From Neohoeflea coraliihabitans (GTDB lineage Bacteria > Pseudomonadota > Alphaproteobacteria > Rhizobiales > Rhizobiaceae), in contig NZ_JAHWQX010000002.1 of NCBI RefSeq assembly GCF_019334345.1, positions 496,001 through 560,000 of the forward strand: a stretch of 64,000 bases of DNA, read 5' to 3'. The notes under the pieces are model-generated. The model had not been told where the DNA came from, ran no database searches, and saw only the letters and a program-made list of their open reading frames with translations. The position numbers and the translations under genes were made by a program. This document shows positions 18,605 through 49,786 of this stretch, in pieces (positions within the stretch are counted from its first letter, which is position 1; each line of letters starts with the position of its first letter).

Positions 18605-19455
18605 GCATGCTGCTTGAACCCTTCGCCTATGATTACATGGTCACAGCGATGTGGGTCTCGGCGCTGACCGGCGGCATATGCGCATTCCTGTCCTGTTACC
18701 TGATGTTGAAAGGCTGGTCGCTGATCGGTGATGCGCTGTCGCACTCGATCGTGCCGGGGGTGGCGGGCGCCTACATGCTGGGCCTGCCCTTTTCCGTTGG
18801 CGCCTTTCTCGCCGGCGGGCTCGCGGCTGCGGCAATGCTTCTCATCCGCGCCCGCACGCTGCTGCGGGAAGATGCGGTGATCGGCATGATCTTCGTTTCG
18901 TTCTTTGCGCTCGGCCTGTTCATGGTCTCCGTTTCCGCAACACCGATCGACGTGCAGCGCATCGTTTTGGGCAATATTCTGGCGATCACGCCAGCGGACA
19001 CATTGCAACTGGCGATCATTGGCGGTGTCACCATGGCGGTGCTGCTGATCGTCTGGAAAGACCTGATGGTGGTGTTTTTCGATGAAAGCCACGCCCGCGC
19101 CATCGGTTTGCGCGTCGGCCTGCTGAAGGGGCTGTTCTTCACGCTGCTCAGCGCCTCGACGGTGGCGGCGATGCAGACGGTCGGTGCGTTTCTCGTCATC
19201 TCGCTGGTGGTGACGCCCGGCGCAACCGCATGGCTCTTGACCGACCGCTTTCCGCGGCTGATCGTCATTGCCGTGACAATCGGCGCCCTGACCTGCCTGA
19301 TCGGCACCTATCTGAGCTATTTCCTTGATGGCGCCACCGGCGGTGTCGTCATCGTTCTGCAGACCCTGCTGTTTCTCTCGGCCTTTGTACTGGCGCCGCG
19401 GCACGGCATTCTGGCGCAACGGCGTCGTGCCCACGCGGCGATGGAGGGCGCGTGA
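18601..19455 (+). CDS. sitC: Mn/Fe ABC transporter permease SitC-like
   Basis: This 284-residue permease of the ABC-3 family has about eight hydrophobic helices. The family motifs [20 protein letters not shown] and [12 protein letters not shown] are present. The sequence is related to the next gene, which encodes the second permease. It begins within the last codons of sitB and ends within the start region of sitD, indicating translational coupling. Confidence 0.88.
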
Positions 19456-20351
19456 TGGAGGCCAGTGGCATGCTCGGCTTTTTCATTGAACCCTTCGCCT
19501 ATGTCTACATGCAGAAGGCGTTTCTGATCACCTTGATCGTTGCCGTGCCGATGGCGATGATGAGCTGCCTGATGGTGCTAAAAGGCTGGTCGCTGATGGG
19601 CGATGCCATGGCGCACGCCGTGCTGCCCGGGATCGTGCTTGCCTTCATCGCCGGCCTGCCGCTGGCACTTGGCGCGTTTGCCGCCGGTCTCTTTTGCGCT
19701 GTCGCGACCGGATTTCTCGATGCCAACAGCCGCATCAAGGCCGATACCGTTCTCGGCATCGTGTTTTCGGGAATGTTCGGTCTTGGACTGGTGCTCTATG
19801 TCAGCATACGGACCAGCCTGCATCTCGATCATATTTTGTTCGGCGACATGCTCGGCATCGCCTGGGCCGACATTGGCACGACGGCGTTGCTGGCAGTGCT
19901 TTGCGGTGGTTTCTTCATCACCAAACGTCGCGATCTGCTGCTGCAAGCCTTTGACGAAGGCCATGCCAGGGCCATCGGTCTGCCGACAAAATTCCTGCAC
20001 TATGCATTGCTGACCGCAATCGCCCTGATGATCGTTGCGAGCCTGAAGGCCGTTGGCATCATCCTTTCAATCGCCCTGCTGGTGGCCCCCGGCGCGATCG
20101 CCTTCCTTGTGGCGCGGACTTTCGCGGGCATGGTGGTGCTGGCGGTGGCGGCAACCTGTTTTTCGGCAATCACCGGCATTTTCGCCAGCTTCCATCTGGC
20201 CAGCGAACCGGCTCCGACGATGGTGCTGGTGCTCAGCCTGTTGTTTTTACTGGCGCTGCTGCGTGCGCTGCTCTCGGCCCGGCTTACGCGCTCGGTGGGT
20301 TCTCACGCCCGCGCCATGCGCGAAGATTCCGGTGCAGGGCGCAGCTCCTGA
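19455..20351 (+). CDS. sitD: Mn/Fe ABC transporter permease SitD-like
   Basis: This 298-residue ABC-3 permease is paralogous to SitC (LMVLKGWSLMGDAMAHAVLPG, FDEGHARAIGLP). The SitC stop overlaps the start; an alternative GTG at 19452 lies three bases earlier. Two permeases plus one ATPase and one binding protein is the sitABCD arrangement. The C-terminal 30 residues are Arg-rich and probably cytoplasmic. Confidence 0.87.
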   Translation: MEASGMLGFFIEPFAYVYMQKAFLITLIVAVPMAMMSCLMVLKGWSLMGDAMAHAVLPGIVLAFIAGLPLALGAFAAGLFCAVATGFLDANSRIKADTVLGIVFSGMFGLGLVLYVSIRTSLHLDHILFGDMLGIAWADIGTTALLAVLCGGFFITKRRDLLLQAFDEGHARAIGLPTKFLHYALLTAIALMIVASLKAVGIILSIALLVAPGAIAFLVARTFAGMVVLAVAATCFSAITGIFASFHLASEPAPTMVLVLSLLFLLALLRALLSARLTRSVGSHARAMREDSGAGRSS

Positions 20352-44649: not shown

Positions 44650-46107
44650 TCACTGAAAGTCGAAGGCTGATAGTCCTGTCACCATTTCGTCCAACCCAAG
44701 CGGGCGGGTGATCGGCGGCTCGGCTCTGGCCAGGCAGCCGGCGCGCTCGCACAGCCGACAAGCGGGACCGATGGGCACGGTCAGTGGCCGAATGTCGCCA
44801 CCGCCGCCGGCCGCAGGTTCCAATGTCGCCCGCGGGAGCGTGTCGCCATACACAATGTCCTTGTATGCGGCGAGATCGCAGCCGAGAAGCAATGCGGTGC
44901 GGCGCGGACGTTCGGCGAAAGCGCCCTGCGGCCCTTCCAGCGTTCGGGCAAGCGTGAGGAAAGCGGCGCCACCAGGCATTTCCACGGCTTCGACCAAAAT
45001 CTGGCCCGGCTGGGCGAAGGCGGTATGCAGCGAAAGTTTCGGGCATTCGCCGCCAAAACGCTGGCGCGGGAACCCTTGCGCTCCGGCGCAACGGAAGCGG
45101 TGACCGGCGACATCGACCTCGAGCATGAAAAACGGCACACCGGCCGCGCCGTCCCGCGCCAGAGTGGTCAGGCGGTTGGCTGCCTGCTCGAAGGACGCAG
45201 CAAAGCGTGAGCGCAACACATCCACATCATAGCGGCAACGGGTGGCGGCGGCGAGGAAGGCGCCATAGGGCATCATCAGAGCGTGGGCGGCGTATCGTGC
45301 CATCTCGAACCGGGCGATACGCCGCGCCTCGTCGCTGGCCAATTCGAGGCCGGCAACCGCCGCAGAGATTGCGACATGCATGCGGATCAGCGACGCCTCC
45401 ATCGCGACTTCGCGCAGCTGGTCATATGGCGACAGCCGCTCGGAAATGAACAGGCGATGCGAATGGCGATCATAACGGCGGCGCCAATTGGGCATTGTGG
45501 CCACAGGCAATGTGCGCACAACGATGCCATGTTCGCTTTTCAGCCACGCCTTGAGGGCCGTCATCAGGTCGTCTCCGGGCGCCAGCAATGCGTGAAAAGC
45601 CTCCGCTTCCGCCTCGATCTCCGGGAAATGATTGGGACCGGTTTCGAGAACGTGGCGCACCTCGTCGATCGGCAGCCGGGTGGCGGGCAGCGCTGCGGCC
45701 CGGCCCTCGCCGGCCAGCAGGGTCGACAGATCGCTCAGCCTTTCGGCCTGTTCGCGATAGGCGCGGTACAGTTTGACAACGGCAGCGGCGGCATTTGGGG
45801 CTGCCTCGGCAATTTCCACCACTTCCTGGTCACCCGGAAGCTCACCGACCAGCAGCGGATCGGCAAAGACTTCCTTCAGCGCAACCAGTGAAGCACCGCC
45901 CTCGCCCTGCAGATCTTCCGGCTCGACCTTGTAGACGCTGGCCAGCTTGAGGATGAGCTGGACGGTCAGCGGCCGCTGATTGCGCTCGATCAGATTGAGG
46001 TAGGACGGCGATATGCCAAGCGCCTCAGCCATCGCGGTCTGAGTGAGGCCGCGTGCGTTGCGGATGCGGCGGATGCGCGGACCAGCAAATATCTTCTGTT
46101 CAGCCAT
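44650..46107 (-). CDS. XRE-family regulator, ScfR/RamB type (short-chain fatty acid response)
   Basis: This 485-residue protein has an N-terminal XRE helix-turn-helix (about 9-65): RIRRIRNARGLTQTAMAEALGISPSYLNLIERN. A middle region resembles the IrrE/ImmA-like fold but lacks an intact HEXXH metal site. A C-terminal DUF2083-type domain holds a Cys cluster (CRLCERAGCLARAEPPI) that could bind metal or an Fe-S cluster. Members control glyoxylate-cycle or propionyl-CoA genes. It is divergent from aceA, and repeated sequences fill the gap, so it probably regulates aceA and itself. Confidence 0.84.
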   Translation of the reverse strand: MAEQKIFAGPRIRRIRNARGLTQTAMAEALGISPSYLNLIERNQRPLTVQLILKLASVYKVEPEDLQGEGGASLVALKEVFADPLLVGELPGDQEVVEIAEAAPNAAAAVVKLYRAYREQAERLSDLSTLLAGEGRAAALPATRLPIDEVRHVLETGPNHFPEIEAEAEAFHALLAPGDDLMTALKAWLKSEHGIVVRTLPVATMPNWRRRYDRHSHRLFISERLSPYDQLREVAMEASLIRMHVAISAAVAGLELASDEARRIARFEMARYAAHALMMPYGAFLAAATRCRYDVDVLRSRFAASFEQAANRLTTLARDGAAGVPFFMLEVDVAGHRFRCAGAQGFPRQRFGGECPKLSLHTAFAQPGQILVEAVEMPGGAAFLTLARTLEGPQGAFAERPRRTALLLGCDLAAYKDIVYGDTLPRATLEPAAGGGGDIRPLTVPIGPACRLCERAGCLARAEPPITRPLGLDEMVTGLSAFDFQ

Positions 46108-46122: not shown

Positions 46123-46290
46123 TTACAAATCTTGACAAAACATCGAGGACAGCATCACGCAGCGTCATTGACAATTTTTACAAATTTACAGCCACGCTTT
46201 GTCAAAGACAAGACCGTATGACATCAATTTCATCCCAGTATCGCGGGTTCTTCTGGCCTTTGTGCAAGCGCAATGTAAATCTTGTCACAT
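46123..46290. promoter_or_regulatory. Repeated elements in the regulator-aceA intergenic region
   Basis: Several related AT-rich elements occur between the divergent genes. Near 46128 there is AAATCTTGACA and near 46278 AAATCTTGTCA, a near-identical direct repeat. TTGACAATTTTTACAAA is at about 46169, and TTTGTCAAAGACAAG at about 46198. They are candidate operators for the adjacent ScfR-type regulator. Which are bound cannot be told from the sequence alone. Confidence 0.4.
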
Positions 46291-46356
46291 CAACGCAGAC
46301 GCCTCATCCGGTCTCGGGGGCGAGCTGCCAGAACATTGCATACGCGGAGAAACACA

Positions 46357-47646
46357 ATGACTGATTTTTACAACCTTGTTCCGAGCGCCCCGGCAGGCCG
46401 TTTCGATGGTGTCGAGCGGCCGTACTCCGCCGCCGATGTCACAAAGCTGCGCGGCTCGGTGCAGATCCGGCATACGCTGGCCGAAAACGGTGCCAACCGC
46501 CTGTGGGATCTCATCCGCAACGAGGATTTCGTCAATGCGCTTGGCGCCCTGTCGGGAAACCAGGCGATGCAGATGGTGCGCGCCGGGCTGAAGGCGATCT
46601 ACCTGTCGGGCTGGCAGGTTGCCGCCGACGCCAATACAGCCTCAGCCATGTATCCGGACCAGTCGCTCTATCCGGCCAATGCCGGTCCGGAACTTGCCAA
46701 GCGGATCAACCGCACCCTGCAGCGCGCCGACCAGATCGAGACAGCGGAAGGCAACGGGCTGTCGGTCGAGACCTGGTTCGCTCCGATTGTCGCCGATGCG
46801 GAAGCCGGTTTCGGCGGGCCGCTCAACGCGTTCGAGTTGATGAAGGCCTATATCGAAGCGGGCGCTGCCGGCGTTCACTATGAAGATCAGCTGGCTTCGG
46901 AGAAAAAGTGCGGCCATCTGGGCGGCAAGGTTCTCATTCCGACCGCACAGCATGTGCGCAATCTCGACGCGGCGCGCCTGGCCGCCGATGTGATGGGCAC
47001 GCCGACGCTGGTTATCGCCCGCACGGATGCCGAGGCGGCGAAACTCCTGACTTCGGACATCGATGAGCGCGACCGGCCATTTGTCGACTATGATGCCGGC
47101 CGCACGGCGGAAGGCTTCTATCACGTCAAGAACGGTCTCGACTCCTGCATCGAACGGGCCAAGGCCTATGCGCCGCATGCGGACTTGATCTGGTGCGAGA
47201 CGTCGAAGCCCGACCTCGAGCAGGCGCGCAAATTCGCCGAAGGTGTGCGCCGCGAGTTCCCGGACCAGATGCTGGCCTACAACTGTTCGCCGTCGTTCAA
47301 CTGGAAAAAGAACCTCGACGACGCGACGATCGCCAAGTTTCAGCGCGAGCTGGGCGCCATGGGCTACAAGTTCCAGTTCATTACCCTGGCCGGTTTCCAC
47401 CAGCTCAACCACGGCATGTACGAGCTGGCGCGCGGCTACAAGGACCGGCAGATGGCGGCCTACTCGGAACTGCAGGAAGCCGAATTTGCCTCGGAAGCCA
47501 ATGGTTACACCGCCACCAAGCACCAGCGCGAGGTCGGCACCGGCTATTTCGATGCCGTTTCGATGGCCATCACCGGTGGCCAGTCATCGACCACGGCAAT
47601 GGGCGAATCGACGGAAGCGGCGCAATTCAAGCCGGCCGCCGAGTAA
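46357..47646 (+). CDS. aceA: Isocitrate lyase
   Basis: This 429-residue enzyme cleaves isocitrate to glyoxylate and succinate in the glyoxylate cycle. The catalytic Cys is about Cys185 in the signature KKCGH ([11 protein letters not shown]). VSGWQVAAD-type residues near 80 ([12 protein letters not shown]) and TSKPD near the active site support the assignment. The ATG at 46357 follows CGGAGAA. It is divergent from its probable regulator and followed by a small conserved gene. Confidence 0.95.
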
Positions 47647-47723: not shown

Positions 47724-47960
47724 ATGGCACCGCAGACACGCGTAAAGGAACGGGCCGAGGAGCAGTCATCGGCCATGTCCACAGACCAGCAGGCCGCAAT
47801 CCGTATGGTGGCCAATGACTTGCATCGCCTCAACCACTCCGTGATGAAAGCGGTGGATGCGGGTGTGTCGGTGGAGCTTGTCCGCTCGGCACGCCATCAT
47901 GGCGAAGGCAACTGGGGCGATCTTCTGATCCCGGTGATTGTCACCCAGGGGCGCGGCTGA
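47724..47960 (+). CDS. Small conserved protein after aceA (DUF6898-like)
   Basis: This 78-residue cytoplasmic protein has an AAGGAG ribosome site and sits 77 bp after aceA. The conserved-looking region runs from MSTDQQAAIRMVANDLHRLN to GDLLIPVIVTQGRG. I recall a small gene at this place in S. meliloti (SMc00767), with no known function. The last 62 bases, including the stop and the terminator behind it, are duplicated about 0.55 kb downstream. It ends in a strong terminator. Confidence 0.75.
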   Translation: MAPQTRVKERAEEQSSAMSTDQQAAIRMVANDLHRLNHSVMKAVDAGVSVELVRSARHHGEGNWGDLLIPVIVTQGRG

Positions 47961-48017
47961 CTTTTTCGCAACCCCCGACAGGTTCAAGCCGCCGCGGAGC
48001 ACTCCGCGGCGGCTTTT
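47898..48017 (+). repeat. 120-bp direct repeat, copy 1 (gene end plus terminator)
   Basis: This segment covers the last 20 codons and stop of the small conserved gene plus its terminator. It recurs at 48450-48569 with two base differences in 120, both synonymous in the gene frame (GAT/GAC and CTG/TTG). Confidence 0.95.
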
Positions 48018-48018
48018 T
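47988..48018 (+). terminator. Rho-independent terminator after the small conserved gene
   Basis: A 12-bp perfect stem (GCCGCCGCGGAG/CTCCGCGGCGGC) with a two-base-plus loop is followed by TTTTT. Confidence 0.9.
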
Positions 48019-48103
48019 CATCAGGGATTCTTCTTATTCGCTTTTGACAGGGACCGCAGCTGCCACTGAGACCATCACGTCAGATTGAAAACGAAAAATA
48101 TTG

Positions 48104-48129
48104 TATAAGACATATAATATATGCTTGTA
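48104..48129. promoter_or_regulatory. TATAAT-like element in an imperfect inverted repeat
   Basis: A TATAAT match (48113-48118) sits about 44 bp before the micropeptide start. It lies inside TATAAG-CATATA / TATATG-CTTGTA half-sites. No -35 with a standard spacer is found (TTGAAA is 22 bases away), so promoter status is uncertain. Confidence 0.3.
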
Positions 48130-48161
48130 TGATACTTCTTTCATGACGAGGAGGATAACTG

Positions 48162-48293
48162 ATGAAACTTTCGATCGCTTTTATATCCGCATTGCTCATT
48201 CTGGTCCCGACTTTGGCATTTGCTCATAGCGGGGGCACAGACTCTTCAGGATGCCATCACAATCGGAAAACTGGTGGGTATCATTGCCACTAA
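48162..48293 (+). CDS. 43-residue secreted His/Cys-rich micropeptide
   Basis: The predicted protein has a clear signal peptide (residues 1-21, LVPTLAFA before His). The mature part is only about 22 residues, with five His, two Cys and the ending GYHCH. A GAGGAGGA ribosome site lies 6 bases before the ATG. Codon use (ATA, CTT, ACT, GGT) differs from the neighbours. The HSGG...GC-H-H...YHCH pattern resembles the YHYH-like tails seen on some secreted nucleases, here as a free-standing peptide. It might bind a metal; function is unknown. It is too short for standard gene callers. Confidence 0.65.
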   Translation: MKLSIAFISALLILVPTLAFAHSGGTDSSGCHHNRKTGGYHCH

Positions 48294-48449
48294 TGTTTCC
48301 TCACTCCTGCAAAGCTCGGGCGGCTGCTCTACCCATACAAAATCATCGAAAACATTGGTTGAATTCACCCGCTGAATCAGACCCAGGCAGGGCAGCAATA
48401 CACTTAGTCCTAGCTCCATAGACGAATACTTGGCTTACTGACCGTTCAC

Positions 48450-48569
48450 CATGGCGAAGGCAACTGGGGCGACCTTTTGATCCCGGTGATTGTCACCCAG
48501 GGGCGCGGCTGACTTTTTCGCAACCCCCGACAGGTTCAAGCCGCCGCGGAGCACTCCGCGGCGGCTTTT
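48450..48569 (+). repeat. 120-bp direct repeat, copy 2 (truncated gene end plus terminator)
   Basis: This is the second copy, carrying the last 20 codons and stop of the small conserved gene and its terminator but no start or 5' part of the gene. It is a pseudogene fragment with an intact terminator hairpin (about 48540-48569, T-run cut to TTTT). It ends 17 bases before the end of the convergent MFS gene. Confidence 0.95.
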
Positions 48570-48586: not shown

Positions 48587-49786
48587 TCAGGCCGCCGGAG
48601 TCAGGCGGCGGCCGGAGACCACCGTTGCCACCATGACCGCACAACACAAGGCTGCACAAACCGCGATGCTCGCGACCAGCGGCAGCGGCGAGCCGTCGAA
48701 GAACGGCGCGACGACGATCGTCATGACGCCGCCGATGACCATCTGCAGCATGCCGCCAAGCGATGAGGCAAGTCCGGCGATGGCGCCATGATCGTCCAGC
48801 GCCATCACCATGCTCGTCGGGATCACCAGACCGAGACAGGCATTGGCAAGAACCAGCACCAGGATGAGCAGCCAGAGCGCGCCAAAACCCGCGGCAACGA
48901 GCGCCACGATCAGCAGCGCGAAAGCGAGAAAGCCGGTGGCGGCCCAGAGCATCATGCGGGTCATGCCGAAGCGCTCACCGAGCGGGGCGGCAAATTGCGA
49001 GGCGCCGAAGAAGCCCAGGGCATTGATGGAAAAGGCCAGGCTCATCGTCGTCGGCGACAGATCGTAATGGCCGATATAGACGAAAGGCGCGCTGGCCAGG
49101 AAAACGAAAAAGCTGGCCATGCCGAACCCGCCGACAAAGGTCAGGCCCATGAAGACCGGATCGGAGGCAAGCTGACGGGTGCCGACGCCGATGGCACGCA
49201 GACGTACTGGAACGCGCTTTTCCGGCGGCAGGGTTTCCGGCTGGACGAACAACGTCATCAGGATCGACAGGATGGCGGCCAGCGCCAGCACGACGAAGAT
49301 GAGCCGCCAGCTGCCGAAAAGCAGAATGACGCTGCCGGCAAGCGGCGCCAGCATCGGCGAGACGGAAATCACCAACATCACCAGCGCCATCAGCCGCGTC
49401 GCCGCAACACCGGTATGCATATCGCGAATGATGGCACGCGGGATGACCATGATCGCGGCCGCTCCGAGACCCTGCAACAACCGGCTTGCGAGAAACAGCG
49501 GCATGTCCGGCGCGAAGACACATCCCACCGAGCCGATGAAGAACAGCACCAGACCGACGGTCAGCGGTCGCAGTCGACCATACATGTCGGCGAGCGGGCC
49601 ATAGACGATCTGCGCCAGCCCGAAAGCGAGAAAAAAGACCGTGACGGTCATCTGGGTGGCCTGGACGGAAGCCCCGAGATCGGCGCCGACCGCCGGCATG
49701 GCCGGCAGATACATGTCGATCGTGATGGGTCCGACGCAGGACAGAAGGCCGAGAACGAGAGCGGAGCGCAGGAAAGAGCGCGTCAT
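48587..49786 (-). CDS. MFS drug exporter, Bcr/CflA family
   Basis: This 399-residue inner-membrane protein has 12 hydrophobic segments. The start SCVGPITIDMYLPAMPAVGADLGAS and the motif YGPLADMYGRLRPLTVGLVLF (cytoplasmic loop 2-3) place it in the Bcr/CflA multidrug-resistance group. RAIIRDMHTG is another family motif. Substrates may include bicyclomycin, sulfonamides or small dipeptides in the family; the true substrate is unknown. It converges on the repeat fragment and shares no operon. Confidence 0.88.
   Translation of the reverse strand: MTRSFLRSALVLGLLSCVGPITIDMYLPAMPAVGADLGASVQATQMTVTVFFLAFGLAQIVYGPLADMYGRLRPLTVGLVLFFIGSVGCVFAPDMPLFLASRLLQGLGAAAIMVIPRAIIRDMHTGVAATRLMALVMLVISVSPMLAPLAGSVILLFGSWRLIFVVLALAAILSILMTLFVQPETLPPEKRVPVRLRAIGVGTRQLASDPVFMGLTFVGGFGMASFFVFLASAPFVYIGHYDLSPTTMSLAFSINALGFFGASQFAAPLGERFGMTRMMLWAATGFLAFALLIVALVAAGFGALWLLILVLVLANACLGLVIPTSMVMALDDHGAIAGLASSLGGMLQMVIGGVMTIVVAPFFDGSPLPLVASIAVCAALCCAVMVATVVSGRRLTPAA

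What the first reader, a model, noticed from the sequence alone, without database searches (positions are those of the whole stretch)
47898..48569. Duplicated gene end flanking a foreign AT-rich island
A 120-bp segment (last 20 codons of the small post-aceA gene plus its terminator) occurs twice, at 47898-48017 and 48450-48569, with 2 differences, both synonymous. Between them lie 432 bp whose first part has only 14 G/C in 60 bases. The structure resembles an integration that regenerates a gene 3' end, as genomic islands do, but on a miniature scale. No integrase is present. The synonymous differences suggest the second copy came from a related lineage or diverged under some constraint.
Basis: partly seen in the sequence, partly recalled or inferred. 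Interest (0 to 1): 0.62.

Follow-up and report, generated by a model that had tools for sequence, protein, structure and literature searches.

The report
Gene-end duplication around a captured gene
A short foreign stretch carrying one tiny secreted-protein gene sits between two near-identical copies of the end of a small metabolism gene in a bacterium, most likely a one-off DNA capture, and the same gene end is also found duplicated, in a different and more structured way, in three other genera.

Summary
The window lies in a Pseudohoeflea-type genome. The gene after aceA belongs to the SMc00767 "acetate metabolism repressor" family. Its last 20-21 codons plus terminator occur twice (47895-48017, 48447-48569; 3 differences in 123 nt, all silent). 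Two same-genus genomes, which are also among 13 of 80 named loci, show the empty site: one gene end, then the same MFS gene. No substantial match to the insert's DNA was found elsewhere in the searches made. Both copies lack a residue that both genus-mates carry, so both come from this lineage or a close one. I favour capture of a YHYH-bearing fragment carrying this gene's 3' end, which kept the gene whole and displaced the old end (as proposed for Vibrio T6SS and Rhs orphan ends). No integrase lies near. Staggered-break capture and an island relic remain possible. Unexpectedly, 13 of 394 family genomes, in three other genera, carry tandem copies of the same gene end with a structured spacer found only at this locus. 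These differ from the window's case but suggest this gene end is unusual.

The parts
   Evidence: ORF 46282-47646; ATG at 46358 read
47724..47960 (+). SMc00767-family gene (78 aa), the target gene
   Evidence: NCBIfam NF050174, 123.4 bits against cut-off 95; coordinates
47895..48017 (+). Repeat copy 1: functional 3' end of the gene (to 47960) plus terminator-like hairpin 47986-48015
   Evidence: 13-bp stem in the fold. The terminator pattern scan flagged nothing
48018..48446 (.). Foreign insert, 45.0% G+C, no substantial DNA match found elsewhere
48149..48154 (+). AGGAGG, Shine-Dalgarno-like, 7 nt before the ATG
   Evidence: read by eye
48162..48293 (+). 43-aa YHYH_alt-domain ORF with signal-peptide-like N-terminus and His/Cys-rich mature part
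   Evidence: NF033223, 49.1 bits against cut-off 30; signal peptide judged by eye
48447..48569 (+). Repeat copy 2: orphan 3' end plus the same hairpin 48538-48567; its frame runs back 11 codons to a TAG, with no ATG, GTG or TTG
48587..49786 (-). MFS transporter; the downstream neighbour at the empty site in relatives
   Evidence: PF07690; synteny

Best explanation
A DNA fragment from a close relative, carrying the 3' end and terminator of the SMc00767-family gene followed by a foreign YHYH gene, recombined with the resident gene. Pairing within the shared gene end anchored one side and kept the gene intact. The other side joined, by illegitimate recombination or as part of a circle, inside the resident gene end, about 20 codons before its stop, and so left a displaced orphan end and terminator next to the MFS gene. 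The YHYH gene lies between two terminator-like hairpins in a formerly convergent intergenic gap, so the insertion probably harms nothing. Shown: the repeat, the compositionally foreign insert, the intact ORF, the empty sites, the short gene-end form shared by both copies. Inferred: donor, polarity (copy 1 incoming, copy 2 resident), mechanism and benefit.
For: Outer flanks match the empty site: gene on the left, MFS gene on the right, single copy in G001 and G003 and in 13 of 80 named loci including those two. Copy 1 and copy 2 have unrelated downstream sequences, so this is not a plain tandem duplication of the kind seen in G018. Both copies encode HHGEGNWG; the longer form (one residue more) is present in both genus-mates, in 28 of 29 relatives' loci (L002-L030) and in 76 of 80 named loci (overlapping sets); the 5 short ones read HHSEGN or HHNEGN. 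So the two copies share recent ancestry. All 3 differences are silent and none lies in the 57 non-coding nt, as expected of two alleles that were both coding while they diverged. The insert is 45% G+C; it has no match in the other 3 genomes of its genus and only 28-43-nt matches in 4 others of 394 family genomes (where at most 2 first-look candidates per genome were scored); plasmid matches have coverages that fit the gene and its repeated end only. Displaced 3' ends explained by homology-facilitated illegitimate recombination are proposed for Vibrio T6SS and Rhs loci (PMC5361080, passages); the process itself is described in PMC3240628 (abstract and outline).
Against: No donor was found: no genome with gene end, terminator and YHYH but without the orphan copy. 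Only one genome carries the insert, and no second strain of the species was available to me. Three silent changes are few (P about 0.04 by transitions, 0.014 over all changes). Mostly silent differences also occur between tail copies in other genera, where gene conversion may be the cause, so they need not mean a separate donor. The short gene-end form is not unique: 5 distant loci have one too. The left junction of copy 2 shows at most 2-3 nt of microhomology (by eye). In PMC5361080 the same mechanism is called quite rare, and PMC3240628 gives 3x10^-10 per recipient in E. coli.
Confidence: 0.45

Rival explanations
1. Capture of a foreign fragment at a staggered double-strand break: overhangs of about 120 nt were filled in, which duplicated the resident gene end on both sides of the insert; the copies then diverged in place.
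For: The genome encodes a Ku protein (PF02735, 173.2 bits), so end joining is plausible. It needs no donor copy of the gene end. Both copies share the short gene-end form.
Against: 120 nt would be a long filled-in overhang. After duplication copy 2 is free to decay, yet all 3 differences are silent in the gene's frame; with three changes this is weak.
Confidence: 0.25
2. Relic of a site-specific integrative element: the gene 3' end was attB, the copies are attL and attR, and the integrase and most cargo have been deleted.
For: Direct repeats of a gene 3' end around foreign DNA with the gene left intact; 9 tyrosine-recombinase hits elsewhere in the genome.
Against: No integrase hit within about 209 kb on the contig. 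120 bp is longer than the 15-30 bp called usual for attachment sites, although the same paper reports a 49-bp repeat (PMC11476347, passages). No phage record matched the target protein and no viral contig one stringent DNA pattern. Among the 17 of 394 genomes with more than one match to the gene end, none shows a second partial copy kilobases away; short att fragments would be missed.
Confidence: 0.15
3. The gene end was duplicated first, as happens at this locus in other genera, and the YHYH fragment entered between the copies later.
For: 13 of 394 family genomes in three other genera carry tandem partial copies of the same gene end; in G018 the unit of about 125 bp, spacer included, is repeated head to tail.
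Against: Copy 1 is not followed by sequence resembling what follows copy 2, and the spacer hairpin of the other genera is absent from this genome (0 matches). Two events are needed.
Confidence: 0.12
4. Assembly artefact.
For: Only one assembly was available; short repeats can be mis-joined.
Against: The copies differ at 3 sites, the insert is single-copy in the genome, the place is inside a 1.08-Mb contig, and 123 bp is shorter than usual read lengths (general knowledge).
Confidence: 0.03

Closest known systems
Orphan 3' ends or genes left by displacement in T6SS effector-immunity and Rhs loci (homology-facilitated illegitimate recombination proposed; PMC5361080, passages)
   Same: An incoming module with a homologous stretch inserts at the end of a gene or cluster, and the old end or old downstream gene is shifted downstream.
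   Different: Here the new end is nearly identical to the old one and the cargo is unrelated to the target gene, a metabolic regulator by family name; one event, with no effector or immunity genes.
Genomic islands integrated at a gene 3' end (tRNA, tmRNA or protein-coding)
   Same: Foreign DNA flanked by direct repeats of a gene 3' end; the gene is kept intact; empty sites in relatives.
   Different: 429 bp, no integrase, a 120-bp repeat, no other member found.
Tandem SMc00767-family gene-end arrays in genera g16, g74 and g120 (found here)
   Same: The same gene end is duplicated just downstream of the same gene; differences between first and second copies are mostly silent.
   Different: Units of about 105-145 bp with a structured spacer and no foreign gene; the spacer hairpin is absent from the window genome.

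Membership tests
SMc00767 family acetate metabolism repressor (NF050174) | Score over the curated cut-off | tested here: met
   123.4 bits, cut-off 95
SMc00767 family acetate metabolism repressor (NF050174) | Represses acetate metabolism | not testable with these tools
   Function rests on the family name; Ramirez-Trujillo et al. 2007 was seen only in reference lists and is not held
YHYH_alt domain (NF033223) | Score over the curated cut-off | tested here: met
   49.1 bits, cut-off 30, residues 19-43
Site-specific genomic island / integrative element | Direct repeats of a gene 3' end at both borders | tested here: met
Site-specific genomic island / integrative element | Integrase or recombinase in or next to the element | tested here: not met
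   PF00589 hits in the genome, none in the window; other recombinase families were not searched
Site-specific genomic island / integrative element | Empty site in relatives | tested here: met
Site-specific genomic island / integrative element | Other copies of the element | tested here: not met
   Single copy in its genome; no substantial match to the insert in 394 family genomes
Homology-facilitated illegitimate recombination product | One border in homologous DNA, the other at a non-homologous junction, old end displaced | tested here: inconclusive
   Anatomy fits; donor not found
Tandem gene-end array of genera g16/g74/g120 | Spacer hairpin GYRTGCCTKCGGCARYRCGGG between copies | tested here: not met
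   0 matches in G000. The pattern also misses the variant spacers of array genomes G307 and G385

The most novel reading that the evidence does not exclude
The 3' end of the SMc00767-family gene is a recurrent target of end duplication: in three other genera it forms short arrays homogenised with the gene and separated by a locus-specific, covarying structured spacer, and in the window the same tendency captured a foreign gene. The array would then be a working element (structured RNA or short peptides carrying the repressor's tail) rather than debris.
Probability: 0.2. Interest if true: 0.6.

Novelty: new variant of a known kind. Interest (0 to 1): 0.38.

Why it matters
It is a compact case of a chromosome gaining a single gene with no mobile element in sight while keeping the target gene whole, and it can be dated and tested by sequencing sister strains. 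The more general lead is that one small gene has its end duplicated in four genera, with first and second copies kept nearly identical in protein sense; that makes it possible to ask whether gene-end arrays have a function.

Tried and rejected
Mobile YHYH mini-element: 23 other family YHYH places (L117-L139) were checked for flanking direct repeats within about 1.5 kb. None is comparable: L121 has a 19-nt match, L124 a 39-nt pair far out plus a 21-nt pair (95%) close to its gene; these were not pursued beyond printing L124. Phage or plasmid origin: no phage hit for the target protein, no viral contig with one stringent DNA pattern, plasmid DNA coverages that fit the gene end only. YHYH proteins occur on 85 plasmid records, but only 1 covers at least 80% of the query, at 62.8%; in 317 genomes drawn from the order the best non-self identity is 63%. 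Known RNA family: no Rfam match at gathering scores in 6 loci. Plain tandem duplication: rejected, because the sequences after the two copies differ. Of the 16 other genomes with more than one match to the gene end, three are not partial tandem copies and were left out of the 13: G066 (second match 46% identity, probably chance), G217 (a complete second gene), G255 (two contigs, 9% contamination). Two weak hits among the 80 named loci (L038, L076) are matches of 21 and 27 nt that do not repeat the gene end with its terminator. The promoter scan found no plus-strand sigma-70-like site upstream of the YHYH ORF (one lies inside it), and the terminator scan flagged nothing, although a 13-bp stem folds (5 of 200 shuffles of that stretch fold as well). 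Papers: seven answered searches, listings read; none pointed to this gene-end duplication; this is not a full literature check.

Full report
Check. The repeat is real and the coordinates are right. It is 120 nt with 2 differences as described, or 123 nt with 3 if the extra codon is counted. All three differences are silent in the gene's frame. It is the only near repeat of at least 50 nt and 85% identity within 1.5 kb in the 64-kb window; none was found in 648,405 bp of 80 named loci around the same gene.

What the parts are. The host genome is 3.93 Mb in 16 contigs and the window is on contig 2. Its genus-mates G003 and G001 have the contig lengths and places of Pseudohoeflea suaedae YC6898 (NZ_SMSI01000001.1) and Hoeflea sp. 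SAT27 (PANK01000001.1), so the genome belongs to that GTDB genus (inference from the match). The target gene is NCBIfam NF050174, SMc00767 family acetate metabolism repressor. The insert, 48018-48446, is 45.0% G+C against 61.6% for the window. It holds a 43-aa ORF with a Shine-Dalgarno-like AGGAGG and a signal-peptide-like N-terminus (both by eye) and a YHYH_alt domain (NF033223). A YHYH domain in phage tails has been predicted to bind zinc (PMC7824862, passage); whether it is the same domain was not tested. Apart from the YHYH ORF I found no homologue of any part of the insert.

Empty site. In G001 and G003 one gene end and terminator are followed at once by the MFS gene. Among the 80 named loci, 13 have the MFS match ending 84-312 nt after the gene match (two of them, L034 and L039, are these same two genomes), and none of the 13 has a second gene end. 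In the window 626 nt lie between the stop and the MFS ORF. G002, the third genus-mate (83% complete), has no match to the gene. The insert's DNA is single-copy in its genome, without a match in the other three genomes of the genus, and in 394 family genomes only 28-43-nt matches in 4 other genomes appear (at most 2 candidates per genome scored). YHYH proteins were found in 23 of 394 family genomes at E up to 0.01, own included, and in 9 of 317 genomes drawn from the order at E up to 0.001, own and two family members included; the best non-self identity among these is 67% over part of the query (L127) and 63% over most of it.

Where the second copy came from. Both copies encode HHGEGNWG. Both genus-mates, 28 of 29 loci L002-L030 and 76 of 80 named loci have one residue more there; the five exceptions read HHSEGN (L007) or HHNEGN (L049, L050, L087, L103) (the two sets overlap). 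The copies therefore most likely share ancestry within this lineage. Three silent differences and none in the terminator fit two alleles that were both coding while they diverged, but the statistics are weak (P 0.04 for transitions, 0.014 for all changes). Copy 2 is not an ORF of its own: its frame goes back 11 codons to a TAG without ATG, GTG or TTG.

Mechanism. A single event in which a fragment with this gene end plus the YHYH gene recombined on one side by homology and on the other without it explains the outer flanks, the intact gene, the orphan end and the foreign middle. This is the model proposed for orphan immunity genes, and cited there for Rhs ends (PMC5361080, passages); [quoted passage not shown] Both sources call it rare. 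Break capture with fill-in is possible, as the genome encodes Ku. A site-specific island relic is less likely: the nearest integrase hit on this contig is about 209 kb away and the repeat is longer than usual att sites.

An unexpected wider pattern. Of 394 family genomes searched with the 27-aa gene end, 355 matched and 17 including the window had more than one match. Fetching 15 of these and reading them with G018 shows 13 genomes in three genera with partial tandem copies: g16 (G018, G144, G213, G269, G389), g74 (G230, G283, G367) and g120 (G122, G195, G254, G307, G385). In most, each extra copy follows a spacer made of an inverted copy of the gene's CATGGxGGCGAxGGC segment, a T-rich stretch and a hairpin. 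The hairpin pattern GYRTGCCTKCGGCARYRCGGG occurs 17 times in 11 of 394 genomes, every time at this locus; the reversed control pattern occurs 0 times in the rows listed. It misses the variant spacers of G307 and G385. On an alignment of 11 of the 13 genomes (G307 and G385 left out), with a structure that I drew from these same sequences, the two stems are 97.0% paired; 4 pairs change on both sides in 14 cells. No shuffle of 500 reached the paired cells, the changed cells or the covariation score, but 207 of 500 reached the number of pairs and 499 of 500 the number of further pair types; slid structures gave 0-1 changed cells. The sequences are few and related, so this is suggestive only. In the five g16 genomes the spacer plus copy reads as an ATG-led frame ending in the gene's own tail; in the three g74 genomes the printed frames hold no ATG, and in g120 it varies. 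First and second copies within a genome, over 51 nt, differ by 0-4 nt in synonymous codons in all 13 genomes and by none in non-synonymous codons in 9 of 13; the others are G269 (2 nt, real replacements), G307 (2) and G385 (1), which lie beyond the stop, and G195, where a 1-nt deletion shifts the frame. Third copies decay in G367 (frameshift) and, as I read them, in G213 and G389. The copies carry each species' own C-terminal tail, which points to repeated exchange with the gene or to repeated duplication. Genera are unnamed in the collection; one attempt to name them through the plasmid collection did not help. Whether the arrays arose once or three times is not known.

Relation to the window. 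The window has the terminator in both copies, no such spacer and a foreign gene, so it is not a member of that array type. Whether the gene end is a true hot spot rests on at least two kinds of duplication at one gene against none in 648 kb of control sequence, which itself includes 80 single-copy instances of this gene end; this is suggestive, not proof.

Verdict. A real single-gene capture with an orphan gene end, probably recent; a variant of a known kind of displacement. The arrays in other genera are the more surprising by-product and deserve their own study.

Noticed in passing
L152, L153, L154, L155, L019 (g16); L148, L149, L150 (g74); L157, L158, L159, L161, L162 (g120): Tandem partial copies of the SMc00767-family gene end, separated by a spacer with two stems, found only at this locus by pattern search; first and second copies are nearly identical within each genome.
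   Followed up: partly
L160 (G217), reverse strand: A complete tandem duplicate of the SMc00767-family gene.
   Followed up: partly
L124, 1456-1476 and 1665-1684: A YHYH gene in G236 with a 21-nt direct repeat (95%) on either side (around CTGATGATGACGCTCAA), possibly a small cassette border or chance.
   Followed up: no
window 44650-46107 (-): ScfR-type regulator (PF09856 with HTH_3 and Peptidase_M78) divergent from aceA; perhaps the local regulator of the glyoxylate shunt (inference).
   Followed up: no
window 18701-18815 and 19573-19687; 95-205 and 605-715: Two other direct repeats of 111-115 nt, 70-72% identical; not examined, perhaps paralogous coding segments.
   Followed up: no
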